Source: Acidobacteriota bacterium
GTDB lineage: Bacteria; Acidobacteriota; Terriglobia; Bryobacterales; Bryobacteraceae
DNA: 64,000 bases
NCBI GenBank assembly: GCA_016213775.1
Contig: JACQZR010000043.1
Span: forward strand, 1-64,000
Direction: 5' to 3'
The position numbers and the translations under genes are program-made. Every line of letters starts with the position of its first letter. The stretch's first letter is position 1. Shown piece by piece: positions 13,340 to 45,615 of the stretch. The notes under the pieces were generated by a model, which did not search any database, was not told the origin of the DNA, and worked only from the letters and a program-made list of their open reading frames with translations.

Positions 13340-14635
13340 ATGTCCCCGGCCAGCGCGCGTGCTGAGAACCTGTTGCTGGTGGTCCTGATCCAACTCATCG
13401 CCATCATCGCCAGCGCCCGGCTCTTCGGCCGGCTCTTTCGACGCATGGGCCAACCCCTGGTCTGTGGCGAAATCGCCGCCGGTCTCATCCTTGGTCCCTC
13501 CCTGTTCGGCGGCCTCTTCCCCGATCTCTTCCAAAATGTCTTCAACCCCGCCGTCGCGCCTACCTTCAGTATCCTCAGCCAGATCGGCCTCATGTTTCTC
13601 ATGTTCCTGATCGGCCTCGAATTCGACTTCGCCCACCTCAAGGACAACCGCGGAGCGGCCCTATCCGTCTCCATTGTCGGCATCGTCTTACCGTTCACTC
13701 TCGGCTTCGCGCTCGGCCACTGGATGCACGGCGCACTCGCCCTCTCCGGCAGTTGGATCAACTTCGCCCTCTTCATGTCGGCCGCGATGTCGATCACCGC
13801 AATCCCTGTGCTCGGGCGCATCATGCTGGAGCTCAACATAACCCGCACCCGCATCGGTTCCATCACCATCTCCGCTGCCGCCGTCGACGACGCCACGGGG
13901 TGGATCCTCCTCGCCGCAATCACCGCCGTGGTGCGCTCCACGCTCGACCCCGTCAAATTTGGCCTCATGGTGGTCGAAACCATTTCCTTCGCCGCGCTCA
14001 TGGTCTGGGTCGTACGGCCGCTGCTCAAGCGCTGGATACGCAAAGTCATGTCCTCGGGTAGAGGCATCTCATTCGACGCGCTTGCCCTGCTTCTGGTCGG
14101 CATCATGCTTGCAGGCATCGCCACCAATGTGATTGGCATCTTCTCCATCTTCGGCGCGTTCTTCCTCGGCGCGATCCTGTACGATGAAACCGAATTCCGC
14201 GAGGCTATCCAGGAGCGCCTCCGCGACTTCGTCACCGTCTTCTTCCTGCCGATTTTTTTCACTTACACCGGCCTGCGCACTGACGTCGGCACCTTGAGCG
14301 GCCGCACCTTGTGGCCGATGTGCGGACTCGTCCTCGCCGCCGCCGTCATCGGCAAGTTCGGCGGCTGCACACTGGCCGCCCGCGGCAACGGCGTCTCATG
14401 GCGCGAATCCGCCATCATCGGAGTCATGATGAACACCCGCGGGCTGATGGAGCTGATCGTCATCAACATGGGTTATGACCTCGGCATACTCCCCAAGAGC
14501 GTTTTCTGCATGCTCGTAATTATGGCGGTCCTCACCACCTATATGACCACGCCTTTGCTTCGCCGCCTCATCCGCTCCACGGAACTCGAACCCTATTACA
14601 TCAAATCCCAGTTCATGCAAGGGCTCCGCCCTTGA
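13340..14635 (+). CDS. CPA2-family cation/proton antiporter
   Basis: A 431-residue membrane protein with about 12 helices, belonging to the KefB/NapA-type monovalent cation:proton antiporters. The motifs GEIAAGLILGPSLFGG (helices 1-2), SAAAVDDATGWILLAAI (the DD ion site of helix 5) and GVMMNTRGLMELIVINMGYDLG (conserved R and E) are intact. It would exchange Na+ or K+ for protons across the inner membrane. The last residues (MQGLRP) are encoded by a palindromic repeat that overlaps the stop codon. Its 3' third is present a second time, in decayed form, at 24878-25334, so this gene marks the left edge of the electron-transfer island. Confidence 0.9.
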   Translation: MSPASARAENLLLVVLIQLIAIIASARLFGRLFRRMGQPLVCGEIAAGLILGPSLFGGLFPDLFQNVFNPAVAPTFSILSQIGLMFLMFLIGLEFDFAHLKDNRGAALSVSIVGIVLPFTLGFALGHWMHGALALSGSWINFALFMSAAMSITAIPVLGRIMLELNITRTRIGSITISAAAVDDATGWILLAAITAVVRSTLDPVKFGLMVVETISFAALMVWVVRPLLKRWIRKVMSSGRGISFDALALLLVGIMLAGIATNVIGIFSIFGAFFLGAILYDETEFREAIQERLRDFVTVFFLPIFFTYTGLRTDVGTLSGRTLWPMCGLVLAAAVIGKFGGCTLAARGNGVSWRESAIIGVMMNTRGLMELIVINMGYDLGILPKSVFCMLVIMAVLTTYMTTPLLRRLIRSTELEPYYIKSQFMQGLRP

Positions 14636-14735
14636 GAGCCCGGCTAGGCTGGCCTGGAAAGGCCAGCCGCGGCCAGGATTGGCCGCCCCACACGACGGCG
14701 AAATGTCCAAACTCCACGCAAGGGCTCCGCCCTTG
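14618..14735. repeat. Composite palindromic repeat (two 17-bp hairpins around a 70-bp REP-like unit)
   Basis: CAAGGGCTCCGCCCTTG, a perfect hairpin, occurs at 14618-14634 and 14719-14735. Between them, 14647-14716 is a 70-bp unit made of two hairpins (GGCTGGCCT/AGGCCAGCC and GCGGCCA/TGGCCGC). The same 70-bp unit recurs at 45526-45595 with only two mismatches, and the 17-bp hairpin recurs at 25318-25334 with one. The left copy overlaps the antiporter stop codon. It probably represents a dispersed REP/BIME-like family. Confidence 0.8.
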
Positions 14736-14769
14736 ACTGGCTGCATCTTTCGCCTCCTCCTCCCACATC

Positions 14770-14837
14770 TCTGAAGATTCCTTCAGAAAGAATTCAGGAA
14801 CTCATCAGGGCAATTTCAGGCTGGCAGGACTGAAAAT
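14770..14837 (+). promoter_or_regulatory. Candidate activator-dependent promoter of the OmcA/MtrC-like gene
   Basis: An inverted repeat TCTGAAG/CTTCAGA (14770-14787) leads into four direct repeats TTCAG, TTCAG, ATCAG, TTCAG starting at 14782, 14793, 14804 and 14815, an exact 11-bp period. A GAAAAT hexamer at 14832-14837 could be the -10 box, 12 bp after the last repeat, as in promoters where an OmpR/PhoB-type activator replaces the -35. Nearly the same element precedes the polyferredoxin-mtrA-mtrB unit (19533-19600). Confidence 0.65.
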
Positions 14838-14917
14838 AGAAAAGGCCCTGACCTTGAGGTTGGTCGTCGGGAACTGGCGCCGCGAGGCCGACAGGCTCGG
14901 GACCACTGGAGGCCGGT

Positions 14918-16954
14918 ATGAGATTTCGGGCATTCACAGCCCTTTTCCTGCTTGTGGCAGCGGTCGCTCTGACCAGCGCCCCATCACCTATTTTTACCGC
15001 TCGCGATAAGACTTTTTACGCGGACCAACGAACGGCCAGCTTCGTCCGGCCGGGTCTGGTGATAACAATTGATTCGGCTACGATTGCGGCCGATGGAACC
15101 GTCAAGGCGCGGGTCAAGTTGACCGATCCCCGCGGGCTTCCGCTGGATCGATTGGGTATCACTACGCCTGGCCCCGTCAATGTAAGCTTCATCGTAGCGA
15201 CAATCCCGCAAGGCCGCACTCAATACGTCGCCTACACCACCCGAGTCCAGACCAGCCCAATCACCAACCAGAGTGAAACGCAGGCGGGCTGCGAGAACAA
15301 CGGCGTCTTCGCACAGGTTGCCGACGGCGTCTACGACTATACATTTCGAACGAAGGCCGCGGCCGGTATCGACCGCGCGGCGACGCACACCATCGGGGCC
15401 TATGGCTCGCGGAACCTGTCTGAATTCGACATGGGCACCAACTATGACGACGATGTCTACAGTTTCGTCCCGGACGGATCGCAAGTCCGCGTAGTCCGCG
15501 ATGTCATCAAGACGGCAAGCTGCAACAAGTGTCACGACACGCTCTCCATGCATGGCGGCTCCCGGCGAAGCATGGAACTCTGCGTCATGTGCCACACACC
15601 GCAGACAATCGACCCGGACACCGGGAACACGCAGGATATGCCGGTGTTGATCCACAAGATCCACATGGGATCGAGCCTACCCAGCGTGAAGGCCGGCCGC
15701 AAGTACGTCGTCATCGGCAACCAACAGTCGGTACACGACTACTCGAAAGTGCTCATGCCGCCCGATGCCAGAAGCTGTATCGTTTGCCACGAACAGGAAG
15801 GACCGAACGCGGCATCTCAGGCTAACCGGCTGCTCGCGGCCAACCGGGCGGCGTGCGGAGCCTGCCACGACGATCTCAACTTCGCAAGCGGCGAGGCCCA
15901 CCCCGGATTGTCGCAGGTGAGCGACAGCCAGTGCACAAACTGCCACATTCCCCGGGGAGAGTTGGAACTGGATGCGTCCATATTTGGCGCCCACACTATT
16001 CCAGTCAACTCCGGATCCCTGCCGGGTGTGGCCTTTACCATCGAGCGAGTCGACGACACGGCCGCCGGCAAGAAGCCGATCGTCACGTTTACAGTGAAAG
16101 ACAAGTCCGGCGCGGCCATCTTAGCATCCAAGATGGACTTGCTGACATTGGTGATGGCAGGCCCGGCGCCCGACTATAAAATGACCACGAATCTCGACGA
16201 GGATGCGCGCTCCGCCGAAGAGATTGGTCCCGGAACCTACAGATACACGTTCAAGACGATGATTCCCGCATCGGCGCGGGGGACATTCGCCCTCGGCATC
16301 CATGGTTTCCGGAATGTGAAGATTCTTGCAGGAACCAAGAAGGAGCAGACGGTCCGTGATGCAGGGTCGAACAAGATCGTCTATTTCGCGGTCGATGATT
16401 CACTGGTGGCCCCGCGCCGTACAGTCGTGTCGATGGAAAAGTGCAACGCCTGCCACGGGCGCCTGCTCAAGCACGCCCGGTTCAAGCCCGCCGACAAGAT
16501 TGAGTACTGCGCCATGTGCCATCTGACCGGCTTCACCGACAAGGATGCTGAATTCCGTCCAAAAGACGCGGCACCGCCTTCGTCGCTCGCGCTGGGATTC
16601 ATGTTGCACAGGGTCCACAGGGGAAGGGACCTGACCCGCACCTACGCAACCTACGGTACCACCAGCGTCCATAATTTCAACATCGTCGGCTTCCCGGGCG
16701 ACCTTCGGAACTGTGGCGCGTGCCACGTGGGTGGCTCCGAACAGCTTCCACTCCCAGAGGGCCTGAGCAGCATCACCACGCCGGCCGAGTTCATGGATCC
16801 GACGCCGCCAACCTCCGCCGCTTGCCTCGGTTGCCATGACACTCAGAGTGCCGCCGCTCATGCCAGGACTCAGACGACTTCGATGGGGGAGAGTTGTTCT
16901 GTCTGCCACGGACCGCAGGCGGAATTCTCGGTCTCGCGCATGCACGCCAGATAG
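14918..16954 (+). CDS. OmcA/MtrC family decaheme c-type cytochrome
   Basis: A 678-residue secreted multihaem cytochrome with exactly ten CXXCH motifs in order: CNKCH, CVMCH, CIVCH, CGACH, CTNCH, CNACH, CAMCH, CGACH, CLGCH, CSVCH, five per half. Each half is preceded by a beta-barrel-like domain, the N-terminal one containing FVRPGLVITIDSATIAADG and LTDPRGLPLDRLGI. This 5+5 layout is that of OmcA/MtrC terminal reductases, which pass electrons to Fe(III)/Mn(IV) minerals or other extracellular acceptors on the cell surface. There is a signal peptide (residues 1-21) but no lipobox cysteine, unlike Shewanella MtrC. A GGAGG-type site precedes the ATG. Confidence 0.93.
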   Translation: MRFRAFTALFLLVAAVALTSAPSPIFTARDKTFYADQRTASFVRPGLVITIDSATIAADGTVKARVKLTDPRGLPLDRLGITTPGPVNVSFIVATIPQGRTQYVAYTTRVQTSPITNQSETQAGCENNGVFAQVADGVYDYTFRTKAAAGIDRAATHTIGAYGSRNLSEFDMGTNYDDDVYSFVPDGSQVRVVRDVIKTASCNKCHDTLSMHGGSRRSMELCVMCHTPQTIDPDTGNTQDMPVLIHKIHMGSSLPSVKAGRKYVVIGNQQSVHDYSKVLMPPDARSCIVCHEQEGPNAASQANRLLAANRAACGACHDDLNFASGEAHPGLSQVSDSQCTNCHIPRGELELDASIFGAHTIPVNSGSLPGVAFTIERVDDTAAGKKPIVTFTVKDKSGAAILASKMDLLTLVMAGPAPDYKMTTNLDEDARSAEEIGPGTYRYTFKTMIPASARGTFALGIHGFRNVKILAGTKKEQTVRDAGSNKIVYFAVDDSLVAPRRTVVSMEKCNACHGRLLKHARFKPADKIEYCAMCHLTGFTDKDAEFRPKDAAPPSSLALGFMLHRVHRGRDLTRTYATYGTTSVHNFNIVGFPGDLRNCGACHVGGSEQLPLPEGLSSITTPAEFMDPTPPTSAACLGCHDTQSAAAHARTQTTSMGESCSVCHGPQAEFSVSRMHAR

Positions 16955-16958
16955 GCCT

Positions 16959-16992
16959 CTCAGGAGGCGGCTGCAACGGGCCGCCTCCTGAG
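16959..16992. terminator. Bidirectional stem-loop between convergent cytochrome and receptor genes
   Basis: CTCAGGAGGCGGC (16959-16971) pairs with GCCGCCTCCTGAG (16980-16992), 13 pairs around an eight-base loop. It lies 5 bp after the decaheme cytochrome stop and 13 bp before the receptor stop, so it can serve both strands. The T-run is weak (ATTTCC) on the forward side. Confidence 0.7.
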
Positions 16993-17004
16993 ATTTCCAG
17001 AGTC

Positions 17005-19395
17005 TTAGAACCCAAACCGAATGCCCACGTTTACCTGCCGGAACAGTCCAGGCTGTATTCCTTGCGGCGCCCTTGAGGCGATGTAGACCCGGTCCGCAAG
17101 GTTCTTCACAGAGAAGTATGGCCGGACCTGCAGGCGTTCGCGCTGCACCGTGTAATCAACATTCAGATTCCATAGCGTATAAGAGGGCACAAGCCCGATC
17201 GTGCCGTCCCCAGTCGGTGTGACCGTCTGGTTGTTGTCGGCGAATTGATTGCCCACGTAAGTAGCGTCGAGTTGTACCCCAAAGCCCTGCCGCTGCCGTA
17301 CCCCGGCAAGGAACGAGAACGTGTTCTCCGGCGCATAGGGCAGCCGGTTGCCACCAAACAGAGCGTTGCGGGTGAACTTTGCCTGCGCCAGGTGCATTTG
17401 ACGAATGTCCGTGTAGAACAAAAGCGGCCAGCGGAACAGGGAACTCCATTCGACACGCAGACTGCTCTCGACTCCCTGGTGCAGCGTTTCACCGCCATTC
17501 ACAAGAGTCGTAGTAGCGCCGCCGGACTGCGCGCCGGGGATGATCTGGTTCGAGAAGTCCATTCGGAAATAAGTGAACTCTCCTCGTATGGCGCGGTTCG
17601 CCTGCGCTCGGATGCCAACCTCATAATTCCAACTCAGCTCCGCGTCCAGGTTTAGGGTCTGGCCGGCGGCCGTGATGGAATCCTTCACCCTCGGAGGCGC
17701 GAAGCCGCGATGCACGCCGGCAAAGATAGAGAGCGGCTGCGCCAGTTGATAAGCGACGCCCAATCCGGGAATGGCCTTGGTGACCCCGTCACCGGCGCGG
17801 CGATCGACATTGGTTGCGGCGTTGGCAACGACGGCTCGCAGAATATGCCGATCGTAATCGTAATGTTCCATCCTCACGCCCGGCGTGAGTGTGAGCCGTG
17901 GGGTAAGGAAGAAGCGATTCTGAAGATATGCCGAAAAGGCGTGGCCGTACCGATCCTCATCGTCGCGTAGGGCGCCCGTGCGCGCATTGAACCTGTTGCC
18001 TTCGAGTTGCTGATCGTCCATGCGCTCACCGATGTAGCGGATACCGGCGTCCAGCGTGTTGCGAATACTGCCTAGCGAGTGCTGCATCGAGACGCCCGTT
18101 TGAGCGCCGAAGACCTGGAACTGACGGTTCCGGTTGAGCGAGCTGTTACGGATGTAAATTGCTCCTCCCGGAACGGACGTGTCGCCAAAAACGCCCCAGT
18201 ACTGCCGGCCGGCGGCGGGCGCACGGTCGAAGTCGGCCCGCGCCCAGTCGCGGACGATCGAATAGCCGAATGCGGTTGAACTCCAGACAAGGTTCGGGCT
18301 GACTGCCATGGTGTGGCTGGCCGAGGCCGACAGACGCTTGATCTTCAAAAAGTCAGACGAAACGGGGTTCTGATTGGGGTCGGCCCGGAACATCGGCGTT
18401 GTGATTCCGAGGTAGGTGGAATTGGAGTTCTCGTCATAATACCCGGTCTTCAACGTGATGGTATGGGCGGGAGCGGGTTTTAGCGTGAATTTCCCTTGCA
18501 CATCGTCGATGTCGAAAAAGAAGTCGCGAAATCCCTCGCCGCGCTTATGCAGCACGTTGAACATCCAGCCGGCCTTCTGGTCTGGGGAACTGCCTCCGAT
18601 CAGGGCGTTGCCGGCGAAGAAGCCACGCTGCCCGCCCTGGATGTCGAAGTCAGCATGAGTGCGCGCGGGAGGGTCGGGGGTGACGAAGTTGATCACGCCG
18701 CCGACTGTTTGCGGACCGTAAAGAATCTGGCCACTGCCCTTCACGACTTCCACGTGACTCATGCGGTCGATCGGGGGTGAATAGTAAGTCTCCGGCTCTC
18801 CGTACGGCGCGAGTGTGATGGGAAGCCCATCCTCCAGCATGAGAACAGCTCGGCTCCGGTCGGGGTTGAGACCCCGAATTCCGATATTGAGACGGGTGGC
18901 GACGGGTCCGGAGTTGTCGTTGATGATAACCCCCGGAATCCGGCGAAGCAACTCATTTGCATCCATCGCATGGGAGTCGCGCACCTCCTGCCGCGTCACA
19001 ACGAAGACGGAGCCCGGAGTTTCGGCCAACGCTTCAGTCGACTCTCCAACTACCTCCACAGAAGCCGTGGTCGACCGAATTCTGGTGAATTGGATCAAAA
19101 TCTCCGCTGAGCCGGACTGGGGCACCTCGACCGCGGCTTGCGCAGGCTCAAAGTTCCGGGAGTCGGCTCGCAGTGTCAGCGCGCCTGCGGGTACCGCGTC
19201 CAGGACGAACTCCCCTTTATCGTTGGTGAAGGTGGTTTGCAACGAGTTCAGCACCTGAATCGCCGCACCACGTACTGGCGCGCCCTGAGGATCGGATACT
19301 GTTCCCCGAACCGACTCGGCCGAGAGCCGGCAATCCCCCGCCAAACAGGCGATTATCGTCCAAACTGCTACGCGGATAACAAAATTCATCGTCAC
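17005..19395 (-). CDS. TonB-dependent receptor, Fe(3+)-dicitrate (FecA)-like
   Basis: A 796-residue outer-membrane receptor: signal peptide, a carboxypeptidase-regulatory-like domain (about 28-105), a plug (about 115-240) and a 22-strand barrel ending in VNVGIRFGF. The plug block IRGLNPDRSRAVLMLEDGLPITLAPYGEPETYYSPPIDRM is nearly the FecA signature, followed by VVKGSGQILYGPQTVGGVINFVT. It should import ferric citrate or a related iron chelate. It sits on the opposite strand between the MtrC-like and polyferredoxin genes, with a Fur-type palindrome upstream of its start. The context suggests that iron mobilised by extracellular reduction or chelation is taken up here. Confidence 0.88.
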   Translation of the reverse strand: MTMNFVIRVAVWTIIACLAGDCRLSAESVRGTVSDPQGAPVRGAAIQVLNSLQTTFTNDKGEFVLDAVPAGALTLRADSRNFEPAQAAVEVPQSGSAEILIQFTRIRSTTASVEVVGESTEALAETPGSVFVVTRQEVRDSHAMDANELLRRIPGVIINDNSGPVATRLNIGIRGLNPDRSRAVLMLEDGLPITLAPYGEPETYYSPPIDRMSHVEVVKGSGQILYGPQTVGGVINFVTPDPPARTHADFDIQGGQRGFFAGNALIGGSSPDQKAGWMFNVLHKRGEGFRDFFFDIDDVQGKFTLKPAPAHTITLKTGYYDENSNSTYLGITTPMFRADPNQNPVSSDFLKIKRLSASASHTMAVSPNLVWSSTAFGYSIVRDWARADFDRAPAAGRQYWGVFGDTSVPGGAIYIRNSSLNRNRQFQVFGAQTGVSMQHSLGSIRNTLDAGIRYIGERMDDQQLEGNRFNARTGALRDDEDRYGHAFSAYLQNRFFLTPRLTLTPGVRMEHYDYDRHILRAVVANAATNVDRRAGDGVTKAIPGLGVAYQLAQPLSIFAGVHRGFAPPRVKDSITAAGQTLNLDAELSWNYEVGIRAQANRAIRGEFTYFRMDFSNQIIPGAQSGGATTTLVNGGETLHQGVESSLRVEWSSLFRWPLLFYTDIRQMHLAQAKFTRNALFGGNRLPYAPENTFSFLAGVRQRQGFGVQLDATYVGNQFADNNQTVTPTGDGTIGLVPSYTLWNLNVDYTVQRERLQVRPYFSVKNLADRVYIASRAPQGIQPGLFRQVNVGIRFGF

Positions 19396-19456
19396 CCTCC
19401 TGTGCTCTGAAGTTGATGAAAGTCTGGGACGCCGAGGACGTCCAATAAATCCTTAT

Positions 19457-19471
19457 TGCAATAGAGTTGCA
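19457..19471. promoter_or_regulatory. Candidate Fur-family operator upstream of the FecA-like receptor
   Basis: TGCAATAGAGTTGCA is a 15-bp palindrome (TGCAA-N5-TTGCA) lying 62-76 bp upstream of the receptor start on the minus strand. Its GCAA/TTGC arms resemble operators of Fur-family repressors, which would fit iron-repressed expression of a ferric-citrate receptor. Acidobacterial Fur sites are poorly known to me, so this is tentative. Confidence 0.4.
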
Positions 19472-19532
19472 TGTGCATCGGGGGTCTGTCAAGCCGAAAA
19501 GCAGCGGCAACTCCGCCTCTGGGCGCACCTCG

Positions 19533-19600
19533 TCTGAAGCACTGTTCAGAAAGACTTCAGGAACTTGTCAGCAGCGATTTCAGACAACCCGGTTTATAAG
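19533..19600 (+). promoter_or_regulatory. Candidate activator-dependent promoter of the polyferredoxin-mtrA-mtrB unit
   Basis: TCTGAAG (19533-19539) is followed by TTCAG-type repeats starting at 19545, 19556, 19567 (GTCAG) and 19579, spacings 11, 11 and 12 bp. About 38 of 50 positions match the element at 14770-14820. TATAAG at 19595-19600 is a good -10 box placed 11 bp after the last repeat. This geometry would put transcription start about 4 bases before the ATG at 19611, so either the message is nearly leaderless or translation starts further in. Confidence 0.6.
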
Positions 19601-19610
19601 TGGAAGTGTG

Positions 19611-21053
19611 ATGCGACTTGCGCACGGGTGCGACCCGGTTGTGGAGCGAGTTCCACCCGGAGGTATCAACGTTCTGGCCTTTGGACCAGTCGGGCGTTTG
19701 GTCGTTTGGCCGGGATTCCCCTACGTATTCCAACTCCTGACACTCTGCGTTCTTCTGTCACTCGCCGTGCTCGGCTGGGGACAACTGACGCCGAAAGGAG
19801 TCCCGGACAAGCTCTATGCAAAAGCGAACCTCGTAAACCTCGTAGTCTGGGGACTGTTCTGGCCGATGATCGTGTGGGCCACAGTTCTCCTGGGACGTGT
19901 GTGGTGCACGGTCTGCCCCTTGGAACTGGTCTCGAACGTTTTCGAGCGGATCGGCCGGCGGCTTGGGGTCAAGCAGGGTTCCATTCCGGCCTGGATGCGC
20001 GCCGGCTGGCTTATGGTAATCCTCTATGCTGTCCTTCAGTTGCTCGTTGCAGGACTCCATTTGCACCGGGTTCCCGGCTACACATCCGTTTTTCTCTGGA
20101 TCATGTTGGCCACGGCGGCGGCTACCGGGCTTCTTTTCAAGGATCGCGCCTATTGCCGCGGCTTCTGCCCTGTCGCGCCGCTGTTGAAGGTGTATGGACG
20201 AGGTGGCCTGATCGCCGCCCGCCCCGGTGGCCCGTCTGCCTGTCACTCCTGCGCCGGCAAAACGTGCGCCGCCACATCGCATCGCGCGAAACTCGATGCG
20301 CGCAGTTGTCCCACCCTGCTGAATCCCGCGACACTCAACAATAGCGAGGATTGTCTTCTTTGCGTCCAGTGCATGAAGAACTGCGAACCCGGAAACATGC
20401 AACTTCTGCTCCGCGGACCATTCGCCGCAGCGGATGCTCGCACTCCGCTCGCCAGTTGGCCGGTCACACTCTTCGTGGTGTTCGTATCCGGGTTTGTCTG
20501 CTCCGAAGTGGCGAGTGAATGGACGGCAGCCAAGTCCGTCTTCCTGGCGCCCGCCGTGTGGGCCACTGCAACTTTCGGAACGTCAGCCCTTGGGGGCTGG
20601 GTGGAAGGAATCTGGACGATTGGGATCTTCCCGTTGCTGCTTTGGTCGGCGATAGGAGGTCTCCTGCTCCTCTTCAGGGGAGCCTCGGGTTTCGGCGAAG
20701 CGTTGCGACGGATCGCATTGCCTCTTGCGGTTGTCATTGCCGCGGGACAGATGGCGAAGGGACTGGCGAAGTTCGTTTCCTGGGCGGGCTTCCTTCCGAT
20801 CGCGTGGAGTGTACCTGACGGAGTCTCCACTTCGCTGGCGATGGCCGCCAAAACGATCAAGCAACCAGCGCCCCTGGTTTCCATCCAGACTGTCTCGGTG
20901 GCGGGTATGGCTTTGGTTGCGGCTGCTCTGTATTGCTCGTTTCGAGAACTCCGGCTGGCCAACGCGACGGTCCGGGTTATTTGGCGCATCCCCACCATTG
21001 CCATGACCTTACTTTTTGGGTTCGTGATCCTCGGTTGGGGTTTTTTGCAATAG
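19611..21053 (+). CDS. Membrane polyferredoxin (NapH/NosR-like 4Fe-4S protein), candidate quinol-oxidising module
   Basis: A 480-residue integral membrane protein with about 9-10 helices and cysteine motifs GRVWCTVCPLELV, RAYCRGFCPVAPLLKVY, CHSCAGKTC...C and CLLCVQCMKNCEPGNM. The last is a classical 4Fe-4S pattern and the CP pairs after the helices resemble NapH/NosR/CcoG membrane ferredoxins, which shuttle electrons between the quinone pool and periplasmic partners. Start 19611 is the first ATG after the promoter; the open frame extends upstream but overlaps the regulatory repeats. Followed 281 bp later by MtrA-like and MtrB-like genes, it is the obvious candidate for the inner-membrane donor, since no CymA-like cytochrome is present. 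Confidence 0.75.
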   Translation: MRLAHGCDPVVERVPPGGINVLAFGPVGRLVVWPGFPYVFQLLTLCVLLSLAVLGWGQLTPKGVPDKLYAKANLVNLVVWGLFWPMIVWATVLLGRVWCTVCPLELVSNVFERIGRRLGVKQGSIPAWMRAGWLMVILYAVLQLLVAGLHLHRVPGYTSVFLWIMLATAAATGLLFKDRAYCRGFCPVAPLLKVYGRGGLIAARPGGPSACHSCAGKTCAATSHRAKLDARSCPTLLNPATLNNSEDCLLCVQCMKNCEPGNMQLLLRGPFAAADARTPLASWPVTLFVVFVSGFVCSEVASEWTAAKSVFLAPAVWATATFGTSALGGWVEGIWTIGIFPLLLWSAIGGLLLLFRGASGFGEALRRIALPLAVVIAAGQMAKGLAKFVSWAGFLPIAWSVPDGVSTSLAMAAKTIKQPAPLVSIQTVSVAGMALVAAALYCSFRELRLANATVRVIWRIPTIAMTLLFGFVILGWGFLQ

Positions 21054-21334
21054 GGGAATTCGGCGCATGTGGAGAGTTACAACAGGCAAGAAGTGGTTAA
21101 AAGCCCCAGTTGACTCTTACTCTCCAATCCTGGAACGCACTTGTAACACCCAAGGATTCAATAAGAAAGACATTTCTAACCTCCCCGCCGACGATCGGTC
21201 CGGAGCATGCATTAGCAAGACATATGATCTTTCGTAACGGGGCCTCCGCAGCCCGATCGGGTGATTGCGTTTGGCTGAGACAGGCCATGTCCTGCCACTG
21301 AATCCAGCCCAAAAACAACTAGGGGAGAAAGTGA

Positions 21335-22246
21335 ATGAAACATTGTCGGCGAATTGGCACAGCTATGCTCATCGCCACGGCGCTTTCAGCCGTGTGGGGC
21401 GCCAGCGGACCGCCACGGAAACCGGTGGACTGGGTGAAGCTCAACCCGGAGTTTGCCGGGGCGACTTTCGTCAACGACCCAACACAGTGCGCCGCCTGCC
21501 ATGAAGACTCCACAAAGACTTTCGAGCACACCATGCACGCCAGGGCGCTTGGGACTGATGGCTCGGGCGCGGACAAATGCGAGAGCTGCCATGGGCCGCG
21601 CAGCAAGCACATCGAGAATCCCACGGCCGCACTGGCTTGGGGGAAACTCGGAGCCGCGCAACAGAGCGCAGTTTGCATGCAATGCCATGAGGGCGGCGCT
21701 CGTTTCGGTTGGAAGTCCGGGGCGCATCGCGCCAACGATGTCAGTTGCACCTCCTGTCACTCGGTGATGAAGAAGAACACGGAGCGTGGGCTGCTTGCCA
21801 AGACTTCGGGGCAGGAAACCTGCTATCAATGCCATCGCGAGGTTCGGGCGCAGACGATGAAGGTGTCGCACCACCCCGTGCGCGAAGGGCGAATGGACTG
21901 TTCGAGTTGCCACAACGTCCACGGTTCGACTCCCGACCTGCTGGTAAAGAACACGCTGAACGAAACCTGCTATAGCTGTCACGCCGACAAGCGCGGGCCC
22001 TTCCTCTGGGAACACGCGCCAGTTCGCGAAAGCTGCGCAAACTGCCACACTGCGCATGGCTCCAACCACCGGAACCTCCTTGTCAAGAAGGATTCCTTCC
22101 TCTGCTTGAGCTGCCATTCCTATGGCGGCCACATCAACCTGCCGCGCTACAACCGCACGAGTAACTCGTATGGACAGGGCTGCATGAACTGCCACATCAC
22201 GCCGCACGGATCGAACCATCCCTCCGGAGTCAAACAGACACGTTAG
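21335..22246 (+). CDS. mtrA: MtrA/DmsE family decaheme periplasmic cytochrome
   Basis: A 303-residue exported cytochrome with ten CXXCH motifs: CAACH, CESCH, CMQCH, CTSCH, CYQCH, CSSCH, CYSCH, CANCH, CLSCH, CMNCH. The repeated HHPVREGRMDCSSCHNVHGS and HAPVRESCANCHTAHGS blocks and the ending MNCHITPHGSNHPSG are typical of the DmsE/MtrA family, the periplasmic wire that sits inside the MtrB barrel. A signal peptide (MKHCRRIGTAMLIATALSAVWGAS) and a strong ribosome site (aggggagaaagtga) support the start. It is directly followed by the barrel gene (8 bp gap). The 281 bp upstream hold no other gene that I can see. Confidence 0.93.
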   Translation: MKHCRRIGTAMLIATALSAVWGASGPPRKPVDWVKLNPEFAGATFVNDPTQCAACHEDSTKTFEHTMHARALGTDGSGADKCESCHGPRSKHIENPTAALAWGKLGAAQQSAVCMQCHEGGARFGWKSGAHRANDVSCTSCHSVMKKNTERGLLAKTSGQETCYQCHREVRAQTMKVSHHPVREGRMDCSSCHNVHGSTPDLLVKNTLNETCYSCHADKRGPFLWEHAPVRESCANCHTAHGSNHRNLLVKKDSFLCLSCHSYGGHINLPRYNRTSNSYGQGCMNCHITPHGSNHPSGVKQTR

Positions 22247-22254
22247 AGGATCAC

Positions 22255-24699
22255 ATGACACAACTTACATTCCTTTCATTCGCGCTGATGTCATTGGCCG
22301 CGCTCCTCAACGGACAGCAGCCGTCCTCCCCCATTACGGTGACCGGTTCAGTGAGCACGGGCACAGCGCAGGTCAGCAACGACACGAATTCCAGCAAGTT
22401 GTCGGAATACCGGGACCCGGAACAGAACCTCTACGTTCCACGAATTGTTCTAAACCTGTTCCGGCCGGGCGCTAACTGGTTTGTAGATTCCAATAGCGCG
22501 AACATTGGCCGTGGCGATCAGAGCTTTTCCACCCGGGGCGGCCGCGCGGGCCGCTGGAGTGTCGGATTCGACTGGTCCGATATCCCCCACAACTTCAGCA
22601 ACAAGGCCCAAACCCCGTACACGCTGAGTGGTAACGGGCTGCTCACCGCTCCCGCTAAAGTACCGATCACTTTCAAGCGGCTGGCTACGGCTGCCGCGGA
22701 TGCACCCGGCGTCCTGGCCAGCGACCTATTGATCGCGGACTACCAAAGGCAATTCCTGCGCCCGACTGAGCTTGCCACAGATACGAGTTTCGGACGACTC
22801 GCGGGCGACTTCACGACGGACCTGCTGCAGGTGGGTCTTGCGTATGACATGCGCAAGCAGGCGGGGCAGAAGTCCTCTTTCGGTCCGATCGGCGACCGCC
22901 CTCCGCGCTCTCTGAACTTGCAGCTTACCGAGCCCGTCGATTACCTGACGCAGGACGTGACGCTTTCGGCCGAGCGGGTCGGCAAGAAGTATCAACTTCA
23001 GTTCAACTACCTGTTCTCCAACTTCTCAAACCGCGTGGATACCCTTGTTTGGGAGAACATCTATACGACAGCGGGAACTGGCTCACCGTTCGATGTCTGG
23101 GACCGTGCCGTTTCTGTATTCGGCCGCCGTCCGCTCAACCCGGATAATGCGTACCATAACCTGTCGCTTTCCCTCGCGCGTGACCTGCCGGCCGACAGCC
23201 GCTTGAGCACCACCGTCGCCGTTGGGCTGATGGGCCAGGACCAGCAACTGCTGCCATATAGCTACTCTTCCGGATCCTCGTTGCCGATTCCGGCGCTGCC
23301 GCGGAACAATGCGGACGCGTCCATGAGAACAACGCAGGCCCTGATGGAATACTCCATCAACCCCCTGCCACGCCTCAGCGTGAGATCCTGGTTACGGCAC
23401 TACGGTCTCGACAACAACACACCCGAAACGCGGTGGCAGTACGTCACGTCGGATACGACGAATCTGAATGGCACAAGCAGCTACAAGAACAAGCGCGTCA
23501 ATCTCGCCTACGCGTCTGACCGAACCAATGCCGGGGCGGACGCAACCTACCGCTTGAAGCCGTGGCGCAGCAGTCTGGCACTCGGCTACGAGCACGAGTG
23601 GATCACGCGTGAATATCGCGAGACCGATACGGGCGAACATCGCCTGACGGCTTTGCTGCGTGCGCGGCCCACGAAATGGTCGAACCTGCGCGCCCGTTAC
23701 TTGCTTGGAGCCCGCAACGGAACGTATGATCCGTTCGTCACCCGCCAGAGCTATTGGTACGCACGCACTGAGGCGAATGATGCCGACAATCCCGCTTTCA
23801 CTTTCAGCAATCATCCGGATATGCGGCGGTTCGACACCGCGGACCGCAGGCGGAACCAGGGAGAGTTCACGTTTACAGTGACACCGCGTGAAGCTTTCTC
23901 CGTGTCGGCGAACGTCTCCTATCGCGCCGACGATTTTGACAGCAAAGTAATCCCCTCGCGTCCGCTTGCCGGCACGGGTTTCGAAGAAGGGGCGCTCACG
24001 CCCGGCGCACAGCTCGGTCTGTTGGTGGACAACCGGCTCCGATACTCGCTGGACGCGTCCTACATGCCGGCCGAGCGGCTTTCAATGAACGCCTTTGTGG
24101 GCTGGGAGAGGGGTTTTAGCCGTCAACGCTCGCTTGAGTTCGATGAAAACAGGAAGCAGGACCCGAGCACAGTGGCCACCGCGGTGTTAGGTCCGTGGAC
24201 CCGCGCCGGCAGCCAGTGGACGGCTGATTCTGACGACCGTGCCTGGACGGCAGGTCTGGGTTTGAGCATTGCGCTTGTTCCCAAGCGCCTCAGCCTCAAC
24301 GCGAATTACACGCTGTCGCTGGGCAACTTTGACATGGTCTACGCGGGTTACGGTGTCACCAGTTTCGACGGTACGCCATTCGCACCGAACTACCAGTTTG
24401 CGTTTCCCTCCAGGCTGCCGCGAGTGAACCAGGATCTGCACATGTTTGACGTAAACCTGGACATTCCGGTCGCGAAGAACGTCTCGTTCGTTGTCGGCTA
24501 CACATATGAGTACTACCGCACGGACGATTGGCAGCAGGGCAGCAGCTATCCATGGGTGGAGCCGGTCGGCAGCGAGTTCCTGCTCCGTGATAGTTCCAGG
24601 TCCCACCAATGGGGGAACCGGCTTTTCAATTTGGGCACATTCCTTGCGCCCGGATATAACGGTCACATCGGCCGGGTGGCATTAGAATACCGCTTCTGA
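22255..24699 (+). CDS. mtrB: MtrB/PioB family decaheme-associated outer-membrane beta-barrel
   Basis: An 814-residue outer-membrane barrel with signal peptide (MTQLTFLSFALMSLAALLNG). SKLSEYRDPEQNLYVPRI near the N-terminus and the ending GHIGRVALEYRF are features of MtrB/PioB porins, as is the dense alternation of aromatic strands. These barrels sheath MtrA and allow it to contact an outer decaheme cytochrome. The N-terminal CXXC found in Shewanella MtrB is absent. The gene starts 8 bp after mtrA, so both are surely co-translated; with the OmcA/MtrC-like gene 5 kb upstream, all three components of an Mtr conduit are present. Confidence 0.87.
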   Translation: MTQLTFLSFALMSLAALLNGQQPSSPITVTGSVSTGTAQVSNDTNSSKLSEYRDPEQNLYVPRIVLNLFRPGANWFVDSNSANIGRGDQSFSTRGGRAGRWSVGFDWSDIPHNFSNKAQTPYTLSGNGLLTAPAKVPITFKRLATAAADAPGVLASDLLIADYQRQFLRPTELATDTSFGRLAGDFTTDLLQVGLAYDMRKQAGQKSSFGPIGDRPPRSLNLQLTEPVDYLTQDVTLSAERVGKKYQLQFNYLFSNFSNRVDTLVWENIYTTAGTGSPFDVWDRAVSVFGRRPLNPDNAYHNLSLSLARDLPADSRLSTTVAVGLMGQDQQLLPYSYSSGSSLPIPALPRNNADASMRTTQALMEYSINPLPRLSVRSWLRHYGLDNNTPETRWQYVTSDTTNLNGTSSYKNKRVNLAYASDRTNAGADATYRLKPWRSSLALGYEHEWITREYRETDTGEHRLTALLRARPTKWSNLRARYLLGARNGTYDPFVTRQSYWYARTEANDADNPAFTFSNHPDMRRFDTADRRRNQGEFTFTVTPREAFSVSANVSYRADDFDSKVIPSRPLAGTGFEEGALTPGAQLGLLVDNRLRYSLDASYMPAERLSMNAFVGWERGFSRQRSLEFDENRKQDPSTVATAVLGPWTRAGSQWTADSDDRAWTAGLGLSIALVPKRLSLNANYTLSLGNFDMVYAGYGVTSFDGTPFAPNYQFAFPSRLPRVNQDLHMFDVNLDIPVAKNVSFVVGYTYEYYRTDDWQQGSSYPWVEPVGSEFLLRDSSRSHQWGNRLFNLGTFLAPGYNGHIGRVALEYRF

Positions 24700-24877
24700 A
24701 CGGCGCAAGCGCACAGGGAAACGCGACACCACGGTGCGCAGCACGCCATGGTAACACTCATTTTCTTGTGCTCCGGGGTAGCGCCGTCGAACCGGACAGG
24801 AAAGGGTCGACAGCCCGTTGTTTTCCACTGCACCGACGCTAAACAGCTCGAATCTGCGCGCTCTCCGGCAACTCGTC

Positions 24878-25334
24878 CATCTTCTTCATCTTCGGCGCTT
24901 TCTTATTCGGGGCGATCCTTTACGATGAAACCGAATTCCGCGAGGCTTGTCCAGGAGCGCCTCCGCGACTTTGTCACCGTCTTCTTCCTGCCGATCTTTT
25001 TCACCTACACCGGCCTGCGCACCGACGTCGGCACCCTGAGCGGCACCTTGTGGCTGATGTGCGGACTCGTCCTCGCCGCCGCTGTCATTGGCAAGTTCGG
25101 GCCGCTGCACCCTGGCGGCTCGCGGCAACGGCGTCTCACTGCGCGAATCCGCCGTCATCGGTGTCATGATGAACACCAACGGGCTGATGGAACTGATCGT
25201 GATCAACATGGGCTACGTAATCATGGCGGTCTTCACCACATACATGACCACGCCGTTGCTCCGCCGCCTCATCCGCTCCACTGGACTCGAACCCTATTTC
25301 CCTAATCCCAGTTCATGCAAGGACTCCGCCCTTG
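24878..25334 (+). pseudogene. Decayed 3' fragment of the CPA2 antiporter gene
   Basis: This stretch is a high-identity (roughly 85-90% by eye) copy of 14137-14634. It begins abruptly at the helix encoding (I)FGAF(L)FGAILYDETEFREA. It carries a one-base insertion near 24945, loss of one codon near 25043, another one-base insertion near 25099, and a 39-bp deletion at about 25216 that removes DLGILPKSVFCML. The conserved arginine of NTRGLMELIV is asparagine here. No start or N-terminal two-thirds is present. With the intact gene at 13340-14635 it forms direct repeats around the electron-transfer genes. The 24700-24877 stretch before it holds nothing recognisable. Confidence 0.85.
25318..25334. 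repeat. 17-bp palindrome, third copy
   Basis: CAAGGACTCCGCCCTTG differs by one base from the hairpins at 14618 and 14719, and is followed by the same ACTGGC as the second of them. It occupies the same place relative to the antiporter fragment as in the intact gene, so the duplication included the hairpin. A further palindrome GGCCCAACGCTGGGCC follows at 25338-25353. Confidence 0.75.
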
Positions 25335-25367
25335 ACTGGCCCAACGCTGGGCCGGCGCCAATGCCGG

Positions 25368-41045: not shown

Positions 41046-43235
41046 TCACCTTACGCAAAACTCCCCGGACTCTTCGTTCATTCGAGCTGTATTTTCCAGC
41101 AAGGCGCGCAATCTGTCCATGGTAATCGGCTTCGGGAGGTAGTCGTTCATGCCCGAATCCAGGCAACGCTTCCGGTCCTCGGCAAACGCGTTTGCAGTGA
41201 AGGCGATGATCTGCGTGGTGATCCCTTGCTGCCGGATCCGCGCCGTAGCCTCAAACCCATCCATCTCCGGCATTTGACAGTCCATCAGGATCGCATCGTA
41301 GTCGCGGCGCTGCACCGCTTCCAGCGCCTCTTTCCCGTTGTCCACCAGATCCACCGTATGCCCGAGCCGCGTCAGCATGCTCTGCACCACCTTTTGATTG
41401 ACGTGGTTATCCTCCGCTACCAGAAGGTGCATCGGCCGCGTAGAAACAGCCAGCGCAGCCGCTGAAGGCGAAGCCGCCGTTGCCTCCTCCTTCACCAGCG
41501 GCAAAACAACCTTGCACTCAAACCGCGTCCCCACCCCCGGTGTGCTCTCAAACCAGATGTCTCCGCCCATCATCTGAACCAGATGCCGCGAGATCGACAG
41601 CCCCAACCCCGTCCCCCCGTAGCGCCGTGTCGTTGACGTATCGGCTTGCAGGAACGGCACAAAGACTCCCTCCCGCTCCTCCTCCGACATCCCGATTCCC
41701 GTGTCTTCCACGACGAAGTGTACTTCCTCCCCTCGCGACCGCGCCTCCACTGTCACGCTTCCCAGATGGGTGAATTTCACCGCGTTCGACACCAGGTTCA
41801 GCAGCACCTGACGCAGCCGGAATGCATCGCCGGAACGCATCCGGTCACACCCCGGCCAAATGTGAAACAACACTTGCAGTCCGCGCTTTCGCGCCTCCGG
41901 CGCCAGGATGGACTCCACCTCCGCAAGTAGCGCCGTTAGCCGGAAGGGCCGGACATCGAGGTCAATTCTGCCCGCTTCGATCTTGGAGAAATCGAGGACA
42001 TCGTTCACTACATGCAGCAGCGCTTCCCCCGAGGCCAGCATCGTCTCCAGATGCTCCCGCTGCTCCGGCCCCGGATTCACATCCCGCAGGAGACTAATCG
42101 ACCCGATAATCCCATTGAGCGGAGTGCGGATTTCGTGACTCATGTTGGCCAGAAATCGGCTCTTCACCACCGTGGCGTGCTCGGCCGCGGCCTTCGCCTC
42201 CTGCAGGTTCTGTATCATCTCTTTTTCCGCAGTGATATCCTGCGTCGCACCTGTGATGCGCTCCGCAACCCCGCCTGCGCCCTGTTCCACAGTGCCCTTC
42301 ATGCGGTACCAGCGGTAGCGGCCGTCTGCACGCCGTACGGGGAGTTCCAGCATCAGATTCGCCGCCCCGGCCAGACAGTCGGCCAGCCGCCGCGACGCCT
42401 CCGCGCGATGGTCGGGATGCACCAATTCGATCCACGCCTCCACCCGCTCCCTGCCAACCTGCTCCCCCAGTCCCATCAGCGCCAGCAGATTGTCCGACGC
42501 CAGAAGTTGCCTCTTGGCAACGTCAATTTCCCAGACCCCGAACCGCGCCGCGCGCTCCGCCAGATCCATCCTTCTCATGTCCCGCTCCAAGGACGCCTGC
42601 GCCTGCCGGTTCTCGATCGCGATCGCCGCCAGATGCGCGCCAATGCGGCATATCCGCAAATCCCGATCACTCGGACTCGTTGGATGCGTATGGTACTGTG
42701 CAATCGTGCCAACCACGCGTTTGCGGCTGTCCACAATCGGAAACGACCAGCACGCCTCCAGCCCAGCCTTCGCCGCCAACTCCGCAAACCCCTCCCACTT
42801 CGGGTCGGTGGCGATCTCATGCACGATCACGACTTCTCCGGTATAAGCGGCCGTCCCACAGGACCCCACTCCATCGCCAATCGCCACCCCGTCAATCGCC
42901 TTGCAGTAGGACTGGGGCAAATGGGGAGCCGCCCCGTGGAGCAGATGTTTCCCTTCCTCATCCACCAGCAGAATCGAAGACAAGCACCCGCGCACCTGAT
43001 GTTCTATCCCGAGACAGACCCTCTCCAGGATTTCGCTCAACGGCGCGCCCCCGGCCGTCATCTCCAGAATGCGCCGTTCCTCGTCGAGCAAGGTTGCTGC
43101 TTCGAGCAGCCTGCTTCGTTCATCCGCGAGACTCGACGCCTGCCGTAGCGCCCGCCGCGCTGCTGCCGATTCCCGCCACCAGCCGGCAACGGCCACCGCG
43201 ACAACAATACCTGCCAGGATCAAAGAGAGATCCAT
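41046..43235 (-). CDS. Hybrid sensor histidine kinase (GAF-PAS-HisKA-HATPase-REC)
   Basis: A 729-residue sensor. One N-terminal membrane helix (1-18), a GAF domain (about 65-205, [17 protein letters not shown]...[19 protein letters not shown]), a PAS/PAC domain (about 220-335), dimerisation helix with the phospho-histidine in [12 protein letters not shown], a HATPase with [16 protein letters not shown] and GGTGLGLSI, and a C-terminal receiver (LLVAEDN...[12 protein letters not shown]). No DNA-binding output or partner regulator is adjacent, so phosphotransfer to a remote protein is likely. The stimulus is unknown; GAF domains may sense redox or small ligands. An electron-transfer cluster elsewhere in the window needs a regulator, but no link is shown. 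Confidence 0.93.
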
Positions 43236-45477: not shown

Positions 45478-45615
45478 AGCCCCCCGGCGGTTGGTAGCCG
45501 GAGGGCCGATTACCAATCGGCCGGGGGCTGGCCTGGAAAGGCCAGCCGCGGCCAGGATTGGCCGCCCCACAGGACGGCTAAATGTCCAAACTCCAGGGGC
45601 CGATTACCAATCGGG
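45478..45615. repeat. Nested palindromic repeat array (second copy of the 70-bp REP-like unit)
   Basis: The stretch contains AGCCCCC/GGGGGCT arms (45478-45484 and 45523-45529), two copies of GGCCGATT-ACC-AATCGG(CC) (45504-45522 and 45598-45614), and between them the 70-bp unit 45526-45595 that matches 14647-14716 at 68 of 70 positions. The 250-bp gap between 45411 and 45664 is thus mostly repeat and holds no gene. It may also terminate transcription of the ADOP gene, whose stop is at 45664. Confidence 0.8.

What the first reader, a model, noticed from the sequence alone, without database searches (positions are those of the whole stretch)
14918..24699. Complete Mtr-type extracellular electron transfer conduit in an acidobacterium-like genome
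Seen directly: a 10-CXXCH protein with OmcA/MtrC architecture (14918-16954), a 10-CXXCH DmsE/MtrA-type protein (21335-22246) and an MtrB/PioB-like barrel 8 bp after it (22255-24699). Known: these three form the trans-outer-membrane wire of Shewanella, and PioAB the equivalent for Fe(II) oxidisers. Inferred: the host reduces (or oxidises) extracellular metal or another insoluble acceptor. The gene order, the absence of a lipobox on the MtrC-like protein, the missing MtrB CXXC and the interleaved iron receptor differ from the Shewanella cluster.
Basis: partly seen in the sequence, partly recalled or inferred. Interest (0 to 1): 0.85.

Follow-up and report, generated by a model that had tools for sequence, protein, structure and literature searches.

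The report
Mixed-ancestry outer-membrane electron wire
A large-genome acidobacterium carries an outer-membrane electron-conducting gene pair (MtrA and MtrB) of a type usually found in distant relatives without an MtrC partner, sitting near an MtrC-like cytochrome of its own family's type, so the apparent three-part wire looks assembled from two different sources.

Summary
14918-16954 is an OmcA/MtrC-family decaheme protein (454 bits, cut-off 209), 21335-22246 a DmsE/MtrA-type decaheme (241, cut-off 192), 22255-24699 an MtrB/PioB barrel (Pfam 305, cut-off 23) whose predicted structure best matches solved MtrB (Z 25.5). 'Complete Mtr conduit' is only partly supported: the parts have different histories. 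The MtrA and MtrB belong to a clade found in Acidobacteriota of other classes, Gemmatimonadota, Ignavibacteriota and others. In 30 named loci of that clade no OmcA/MtrC gene was matched, and 15 of the 17 held with 3 kb on both sides have a two-component system within 4 kb. Of 237 genomes of the host's family only this one has this MtrB type. The MtrC-like gene belongs to the family's own radiation. A second locus (contig C143) encodes a CbcL-like protein, MtrC, an MtrA-like protein and a barrel without a Pfam MtrB match that folds like MtrB. Most likely this is an acquired MtrAB wire able to work alone, possibly capped by the home-lineage MtrC. Direction and pairing are untested. MtrCAB in Bryobacterales, and mixed MtrC/MtrAB ancestry elsewhere, are already published; this is a new variant.

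The parts
14918..16954 (+). OmcA/MtrC-family decaheme c-type cytochrome (mtrC-like), 678 aa, no lipobox
   Evidence: 10 CXXCH; TIGR03507 454 bits over cut-off 209; PF22113 domains II/IV in two stretches; phmmer to MtrF 3pmq 5.8e-22; home-family lineage in tree
17005..19395 (-). TonB-dependent receptor with plug and carboxypeptidase-regulatory domain, FecA/siderophore-like
   Evidence: PF00593, PF07715, PF13620; NF041676 206 bits, below its 1100 cut-off
19611..21053 (+). NapH-like polytopic iron-sulphur membrane protein (start inferred; the ORF opens at 19467); candidate quinol dehydrogenase
   Evidence: PF12801 26.5 bits over cut-off 22; TIGR02163 napH 44.7 bits, below cut-off 213; simple hydropathy scan gives 9 candidate membrane helices; 12 cysteine columns invariant in 4 aligned rows; 57% homolog in G093, 34-35% homolog directly downstream of mtrB in G213
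21335..22246 (+). DmsE/MtrA-type decaheme cytochrome (mtrA), 303 aa
   Evidence: 10 CXXCH; TIGR03508 241 bits over cut-off 192; phmmer to Mtr complex chain 6r2q_A 2e-54; clade of 34 rows at 99%
22255..24699 (+). MtrB/PioB-type outer-membrane barrel (mtrB), 814 aa, 8 bases after mtrA
   Evidence: PF11854 305 bits over cut-off 23; AlphaFold model pLDDT 72.4; best match 6r2q_B: Foldseek 4.6e-37, VIA Z 25.5 over 633 residues
13340..14635 (+). Intact sodium/hydrogen antiporter gene flanking the block on the left (context, not part of the wire)
   Evidence: PF00999 205.8 bits; 63-67% homologs in five genomes of the family
24878..25335 (+). Broken second copy of the 3' part of that antiporter gene, flanking the block on the right
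   Evidence: 416 of 501 aligned positions identical, with gaps; gap-free stretches 89-97%

Best explanation
The locus encodes an outer-membrane electron conduit: MtrB is a barrel that holds the ten-heme rod MtrA and lets electrons cross the outer membrane. This MtrAB pair was acquired horizontally from a cross-phylum lineage whose members normally have no MtrC nearby and often carry an adjacent two-component regulator, which is missing here. In this genome it lies near an MtrC-like decaheme of the home family's lineage. MtrC may serve as an added outer terminal for solid acceptors; MtrAB could also act alone on soluble iron or electrodes. Electrons most likely come from quinol through membrane proteins: the NapH-like protein in the locus is a candidate, and a CbcL-like nine-CXXCH cytochrome b on contig C143 is an alternative encoded elsewhere. 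Shown: families, fold, separate ancestries, sporadic occurrence. Inferred: the acquisition, the electron path, its direction (reduction thought more likely, not tested) and any MtrC-MtrAB contact.
For: Profiles and heme counts. MtrB fold. MtrB tree: 11-row clade at 100% with genomes of other classes; a tree grouping it with its own family's MtrBs is rejected, p-AU 2e-40; MtrA likewise, p 1.5e-57. Clade MtrB in 1 of 237 family genomes; the other matches in the family are 32% identical or less. OmcA/MtrC matched in 0 of 30 named clade loci; two-component pair within 4 kb in 19 of 30, or 15 of the 17 with 3 kb held on both sides. MtrC nested among family MtrCs (97% and 95% branches); grouping with the three MtrCs whose loci also hold mtrAB is rejected, p 1.7e-5. 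OmcA/MtrC over cut-off in 53 of 101 relatives against 13 of 101 for MtrB. By own arithmetic, five MtrC genes in 10.96 Mb put one within 5 kb of a random point about 0.5% of the time, so the closeness is unlikely to be chance.
Against: No expression, localisation or activity data. MtrC and MtrAB are not an operon. At least two other MtrC genes of this genome stand alone, so closeness may be fortuitous. No empty site could be shown. GC3 of mtrA and mtrB (0.74, 0.73) is like the rest of the window, so composition does not mark recent arrival; the codon score per residue is lowest in the window for mtrA and the NapH-like ORF (0.050, 0.069) but ordinary for mtrB (0.195), which is equivocal. Tree supports are SH-aLRT from short searches without bootstrap; the window MtrC has a long end branch (0.67), and no starred set of up to half of the rows holds it. 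The groups for the AU tests were named after the trees had been seen. MtrC rows of the phylum scan are not in the MtrC tree. Many clade loci are short: only 17 of 30 hold 3 kb on both sides.
Confidence: 0.68

Rival explanations
1. MtrAB works alone, like MtoAB or PioAB, and the MtrC-like protein is an unrelated neighbour. Electron flow might then be uptake rather than export.
For: 0 of 30 named clade loci have a matched OmcA/MtrC. Of the 10 genomes with the closest MtrBs, 1 has a full-length OmcA/MtrC on another contig, 1 a fragment, 2 only weak partial matches, 6 no match (only two candidates per genome were scored). MtrC paralogs on C115 and C213 have no decaheme partner or barrel match in at least 8.5 kb on each side. 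Literature passages: MtrAB alone can move electrons across the outer membrane, and some clusters, especially Fe(II)-oxidising ones, lack mtrC (PMC4245776).
Against: The 4.4 kb closeness has roughly 0.5% chance odds for five MtrC genes (own arithmetic). No CymA-like tetraheme gene was called nearby: the only other CXXCH genes called in the window have 1 and 3 motifs.
Confidence: 0.4
2. A vertically inherited MtrCAB cluster of the published Bryobacterales type (Baker group 5).
For: The published group 5 consists of Acidobacteriia that are unclassified or Bryobacterales (PMC8805035 passages); G010 and G014 in the host family have MtrA-MtrB-multiheme-MtrC clusters.
Against: Window MtrB is about 25% and MtrA 39-42% identical to those; joint clades rejected for MtrB, MtrA and MtrC; gene order differs and the intervening multiheme gene is absent.
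Confidence: 0.03
3. An iron-acquisition module: MtrAB, MtrC and the NapH-like protein reduce extracellular Fe(III) so that iron can be taken up, together with the TonB receptor.
For: A FecA/siderophore-like receptor and an iron-sulphur membrane protein lie divergently between mtrC and mtrA; G229 has MtrC, MtrAB, a NapH-like protein and a FeoB-like protein (the last named from recall) in one 18 kb stretch.
Against: In the 30 named clade loci the TonB receptor was matched only in L231, at 28% over 226 residues.
Confidence: 0.15
4. Binning or assembly artefact: the block belongs to another organism of the sample.
For: Bin contamination 4.6% in 314 contigs; MtrAB relatives lie in other classes.
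Against: Single 134.5 kb contig; the MtrC, of home-family type, lies between the antiporter and mtrAB; the two antiporter copies differ at about 17% of aligned positions, gaps included, so they are not one collapsed repeat; GC3 is uniform.
Confidence: 0.07

Closest known systems
Shewanella MtrCAB (solved complex 6r2q; that it is from a Shewanella is recalled)
   Same: MtrA-type decaheme, MtrB fold, OmcA/MtrC-family decaheme
   Different: mtrC is not adjacent and is of separate ancestry; no lipobox; barrel of 814 aa without cysteine
Group 5 MtrCAB of Acidobacteriia/Bryobacterales (Baker et al. 2022, PMC8805035, passages seen)
   Same: Same phylum, possibly same order (inferred)
   Different: Different MtrA/MtrB clade and MtrC branch from the G010 and G014 clusters taken here as group-5-like; no multiheme gene after mtrB; the paper reports for group 5 no adjacent mtrC duplicates and no nearby inner-membrane quinone oxidoreductase, while this genome has five MtrC genes and a NapH-like gene in the locus
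Mosaic mtr clusters, e.g. Niveibacterium with group 4 MtrC and group 3 MtrAB (PMC8805035 passages), and MtoAB with MtrC in Gallionellaceae MAGs (PMC10734462 passages)
   Same: MtrC and MtrAB of different ancestry, or MtrC added to an otherwise MtrC-less pair: a precedent for a hybrid
   Different: Other lineages; there the genes are described as one cluster or simply as encoded together; not the clade found here
MtoAB / PioAB
   Same: An MtrAB pair without MtrC is the usual state in the window's clade
   Different: The Mto cluster carries CymA/ImoA and MtoD (PMC12016527 passages); none was called here; sequence relation to MtoA and PioA was not tested
GSU2203/GSU2204 decaheme-barrel pair (NCBIfam NF041028/NF041027)
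   Same: Decaheme plus barrel; P0002 scores 242 bits and P0003 77 bits
   Different: Both below the curated cut-offs 325 and 350

Membership tests
OmcA/MtrC decaheme cytochromes | TIGR03507 score over curated cut-off and 10 CXXCH | tested here: met
   454.2 bits against 209.3; 10 CXXCH
OmcA/MtrC decaheme cytochromes | MtrC/MtrF domain II/IV architecture | tested here: met
   PF22113 158.9 bits, two stretches
OmcA/MtrC decaheme cytochromes | Lipoprotein signal (lipobox) as in Shewanella MtrC (recalled) | tested here: not met
   No cysteine before residue 125; a lipobox-like pattern was found in 5 of 63 homologous rows scanned, start codons uncertain
OmcA/MtrC decaheme cytochromes | Location on the cell surface | not testable with these tools
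   -
MtrA/DmsE decaheme cytochromes | TIGR03508 over cut-off and 10 CXXCH | tested here: met
   240.7 bits against 192.2; 10 CXXCH
MtrB/PioB barrels | Pfam MtrB_PioB (PF11854) over cut-off | tested here: met
   305.4 bits against 23
MtrB/PioB barrels | NCBIfam TIGR03509 over cut-off | tested here: not met
   208.3 bits against 240.05; so it is filed as MtrB/PioB in the broad Pfam sense only
MtrB/PioB barrels | Fold of solved MtrB | tested here: met
   6r2q_B first in both comparisons, Z 25.5, rmsd 3.2, 633 aligned; next 17.5
MtrB of Shewanella | N-terminal CXXC (recalled) | tested here: not met
   No cysteine in P0003; no CXXC in any of the 14 rows of A1
mtrCAB gene cluster | mtrC, mtrA and mtrB directly clustered (criterion in PMC8805035) | tested here: not met
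   Two genes, one on the other strand, and 4.4 kb between mtrC and mtrA
mtrCAB gene cluster | Common ancestry of the three genes with the mtrCAB clusters of the host family (G010, G014) | tested here: not met
   Joint clades rejected
Working extracellular electron transfer conduit | Measured electron transfer across the outer membrane | not testable with these tools
   -
NapH/MauN ferredoxin-type quinol dehydrogenase | TIGR02163 over cut-off | tested here: not met
   44.7 bits against 213; described only as NapH-like

The most novel reading that the evidence does not exclude
A natural hybrid wire: a foreign MtrC-less MtrAB of a two-component-associated, cross-phylum clade lost its own regulator and was re-plugged into home parts, with a family-native MtrC as outer terminal and a NapH-type iron-sulphur protein as inner-membrane quinol link, in place of CymA, CbcL or ImcH. 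In the same genome a second conduit uses a barrel with MtrB fold that the MtrB sequence profiles do not recognise.
Probability: 0.3. Interest if true: 0.63.

Novelty: new variant of a known kind. Interest (0 to 1): 0.48.

Why it matters
It suggests that MtrAB and MtrC are separable parts that bacteria recombine across lineages. Surveys that require clustered mtrC, mtrA and mtrB, as PMC8805035 says it does (passage), would pass over the MtrC-less clade. A survey of 24 acidobacterial genomes reported mtrA/mtrB homologs in several but no complete mtr/omc operon (PMC5900883, abstract and passages). The C143 barrel, without an MtrB match in Pfam or NCBIfam but MtrB-like in fold, offers a possible reason that can be tested directly.

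Tried and rejected
The genome-contig scan with P0003 alone found no relative; the scan with the MtrA alignment worked (best 80 of 142 kept, 78 distinct loci). Shared descent of window MtrCAB with the mtrCAB clusters of the family was tested and rejected. An empty insertion site was sought at antiporter homologs of G006, G001, G024, G020 and G015: the surroundings differ, and no called gene there matched the window's MtrC, MtrA or MtrB; the caller can miss MtrA genes. Compositional evidence of import was equivocal. The NapH-like protein as a regular partner of the clade was not supported: in L115-L127 and L225-L302 it was matched only in G213 (L123/L241) and, at 26-30%, in G229 (L126); the 46-48 residue matches in L122/L245 and L250 overlap mtrB and come from the G213 query ORF, which starts inside mtrB. 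Its 57% homolog in G093 has no MtrA or MtrB match in the 12.4 kb held. Weaker homologs lie 11 kb from MtrB in G087 (27%) and about 4 kb from MtrC in G093 (32%) by coordinates; these were not studied. PDB chains other than MtrB are generic barrels at Z 17.5 and below.

Full report
OBSERVATION. The three genes are present as described. P0001 and P0002 each hold 10 CXXCH; the most found in 2000 residue shuffles was 1 and 2. TIGR03507 scores 454 (cut-off 209) on P0001, TIGR03508 scores 241 (192) on P0002 and PF11854 scores 305 (23) on P0003; TIGR03509 scores 208 on P0003, below its cut-off of 240. The barrel holds no cysteine. phmmer with P0003 found no PDB chain by sequence, but an AlphaFold model built on 14 sequences (pLDDT 72.4) matches solved MtrB 6r2q_B best: Foldseek 4.6e-37, and Z 25.5 over 633 residues, against 17.5 for the next chain. 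P0002 matches the Mtr complex chain 6r2q_A at 2e-54 (the molecule name listed there is that of another enzyme, apparently a labelling error).

HOST. The window lies on a 134.5 kb contig of a 10.96 Mb genome in 314 contigs, 98.5% complete and 4.6% contaminated. The phylum is inferred to be Acidobacteriota: several 'same phylum' genomes have contigs of the same length as named Acidobacteria records, namely 13622, 36984, 36316, 691058, 38640 and 63548 bases. The order Bryobacterales is only a guess, from similarity of relatives G010 and G014 to the published group 5 layout.

MtrAB ANCESTRY. In a phylum draw of 396 genomes, 54 have a match to P0003; the nearest MtrBs are 52-59% identical and lie in other classes, followed by three at 39-43% (two candidates per genome scored). 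MtrBs of the window's own family are about 25% identical by BLASTP and 26-32% in the family scan. In the MtrB tree (22 rows) the window sits in an 11-row clade at 100%; in the 45-row MtrA tree in a 10-row clade at 99%. Forcing the window to group with its family's copies is rejected, p-AU 2e-40 for MtrB and 1.5e-57 for MtrA (groups named after the trees had been seen). In 237 family genomes, 12 have any match to P0003 and none but the window's own exceeds 32% identity. A scan of named genomes with the MtrA alignment gave 78 loci. In a 96-row tree the clade has 34 rows at 99%, from Acidobacteriota, Gemmatimonadota, Ignavibacteriota, Myxococcota, Thermodesulfobacteriota, Schekmanbacteria and one unplaced deltaproteobacterium, with the window in a 15-row acidobacterial part at 95%. 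That spread suggests horizontal movement; its direction was not worked out. All supports are SH-aLRT from short searches.

THE CLADE IS MtrC-LESS AND OFTEN REGULATED. Many loci are short: 17 of 30 hold at least 3 kb on both sides of the pair. A histidine kinase and a response regulator lie within 4 kb in 19 of 30, and in 15 of those 17. The pair of L119 scores best against the heavy-metal CopR/CopS-type models and the kinase of L116 against ZraS, all below their cut-offs. In the genomes with the 10 nearest MtrBs, OmcA/MtrC is full length in G246 on another contig, a fragment in G193, weak and partial in G422 and G213, and unmatched in the other six (apparently the same 396 genomes; two candidates per genome scored). 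No kinase or regulator was recognised beside the window pair; the nearest window protein with such similarity lies at 41046-43235.

MtrC ANCESTRY. OmcA/MtrC genes over cut-off occur in 53 of 101 relatives, including all 12 genomes of the genus that were searched, against 13 of 101 for MtrB. The window MtrC is 57% identical to one of its own family and at best 49% to those outside the class. In the 61-row tree it is nested among family sequences (46 rows at 97%, 38 rows at 95%), though no starred set of up to half of the rows holds it and its end branch is long. Grouping it with the three MtrCs whose loci also hold mtrAB (L061, L063, L126) is rejected, p 1.7e-5 (named after the tree had been seen). 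This genome has five such genes over cut-off and a sixth partial one; those on C115 and C213 have no decaheme or barrel match in at least 8.5 kb on each side. Closeness of mtrC to mtrAB in the window is therefore either meaningful or a roughly 0.5% accident (own arithmetic: five genes, 5 kb each way, 10.96 Mb).

THE BLOCK BETWEEN. A TonB receptor (minus strand) and a NapH-like iron-sulphur membrane protein (plus strand) lie back to back between mtrC and mtrA. In 101 relatives 11 have any match to the NapH-like protein; apart from the window's own only G093 has a close full-length one (57%), not near MtrAB in the stretch held, and G044 has a 58-residue piece at 67%. A 34-35% homolog lies directly downstream of mtrB in G213, a member of the same MtrAB clade, and a 26-30% one near MtrAB in G229. 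That is suggestive of a quinol link but thin. The block from 14636 to 24877 is bounded by an intact antiporter gene and a broken copy of its last third (416 of 501 aligned positions identical). A palindrome lies at the end of both antiporter copies and once more at 14720. No empty site could be shown.

A SECOND CONDUIT. On contig C143 (L054) lie a nine-CXXCH cytochrome b561-type protein with the layout published for CbcL (PF01292; PMC6295460 passages; homology to CbcL itself not tested), an OmcA/MtrC gene, a 674-residue barrel and a DmsE decaheme. The barrel has no MtrB match in Pfam or NCBIfam, yet its model (pLDDT 67.4, pTM 0.58) matches MtrB 6r2q_B best: Foldseek 4.2e-14, and Z 21.1 over 528 residues against 17.1 for the next. 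Related decahemes or barrels sit beside MtrC in 27 of 50 loci fetched around MtrC genes of relatives (29 with two weak matches; most flanks are short; L150 and L176 share one gene). This looks like a common conduit of the family.

MECHANISM. Most likely the MtrB barrel sheaths the MtrA rod so that electrons cross the outer membrane. Passages in PMC4245776 and PMC10734462 state that MtrAB alone can do this for soluble Fe(III) and electrodes, that MtrC is needed for solid minerals, and that the related complexes can run inwards. Supply from quinol could come from the NapH-like protein, from the CbcL-like protein of C143, or from one of four NapC/NirT-type matches. Direction cannot be read from sequence.

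LITERATURE. MtrCAB in Acidobacteriia, including Bryobacterales, is published, and so is mixed MtrC/MtrAB ancestry in other bacteria (PMC8805035, passages); MtrC with MtoAB in Gallionellaceae MAGs is reported in PMC10734462 (passages). mtrA/mtrB homologs without complete operons were reported in several acidobacterial genomes (PMC5900883, passages). Passages of PMC11475568 name no Acidobacteria. On checking, the published mosaics were given more weight, so interest was lowered slightly (0.50 to 0.48, and 0.68 to 0.63 for the novel case). Eight searches of the open-access library, several with capped lists (for example 12 of 172 and 10 of 200 shown), listed no paper that by title and opening abstract describes an MtrC-less two-component-linked MtrAB clade of this spread; no paper was read whole. 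The verdict is a new variant of a known kind, with pairing and direction open.

Noticed in passing
L054 6573-14366 (own genome, contig C143): A second conduit: CbcL-like nine-CXXCH cytochrome b, OmcA/MtrC, a 674-aa barrel without Pfam/NCBIfam MtrB match but with MtrB as best fold match (Z 21.1), and a DmsE decaheme.
   Followed up: partly
L055 7513-10509 (own genome, contig C230): A third DmsE decaheme next to a 669-aa barrel about 22% identical to the C143 one.
   Followed up: partly
window 24878-25335 against 14137-14635: Broken copy of the antiporter 3' part on the far side of the block, suggesting recombination at its edges.
   Followed up: partly
window 14619-14633, 14720-14734, 25319-25333: Palindrome AAGGGCTCCGCCCTT (one mismatch in the third) at the ends of both antiporter copies; 0 of 100 shuffles had three matches. 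Exact copies in other fetched loci only where these cover the same place.
   Followed up: partly
window 14647-14716 and 45526-45595: 70-base repeat, 97% identical, both copies outside called genes.
   Followed up: no
L061 4599-6059 and L063 11236-12741: In family genomes G010 and G014 a seven-CXXCH protein (PF13447 in L061) lies between mtrB and mtrC, where the published group 5 is said to have a tetraheme.
   Followed up: no
L064 and L065 (G099, G084), L235: mtrAB followed by small redox-like genes and proteins with up to 19 CXXCH, perhaps a cytochrome bc-type membrane link (the bc idea is a guess).
   Followed up: no
N-termini of the OmcA/MtrC rows: 58 of 63 rows lack a lipobox pattern and many share a hydrophobic stretch ending in SAP, so these proteins may be anchored or exported differently from Shewanella MtrC.
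   Followed up: partly
G087:C5 and G093:C40: Weak NapH-like homologs lie 11 kb from an MtrB gene (G087, 27%) and about 4 kb from an MtrC gene (G093, 32%) by coordinates.
   Followed up: no
window 51039-53954: 971-aa minus-strand protein with three CXXCH; the neighbouring gene at 49685-51010 is sulfatase-like.
   Followed up: no
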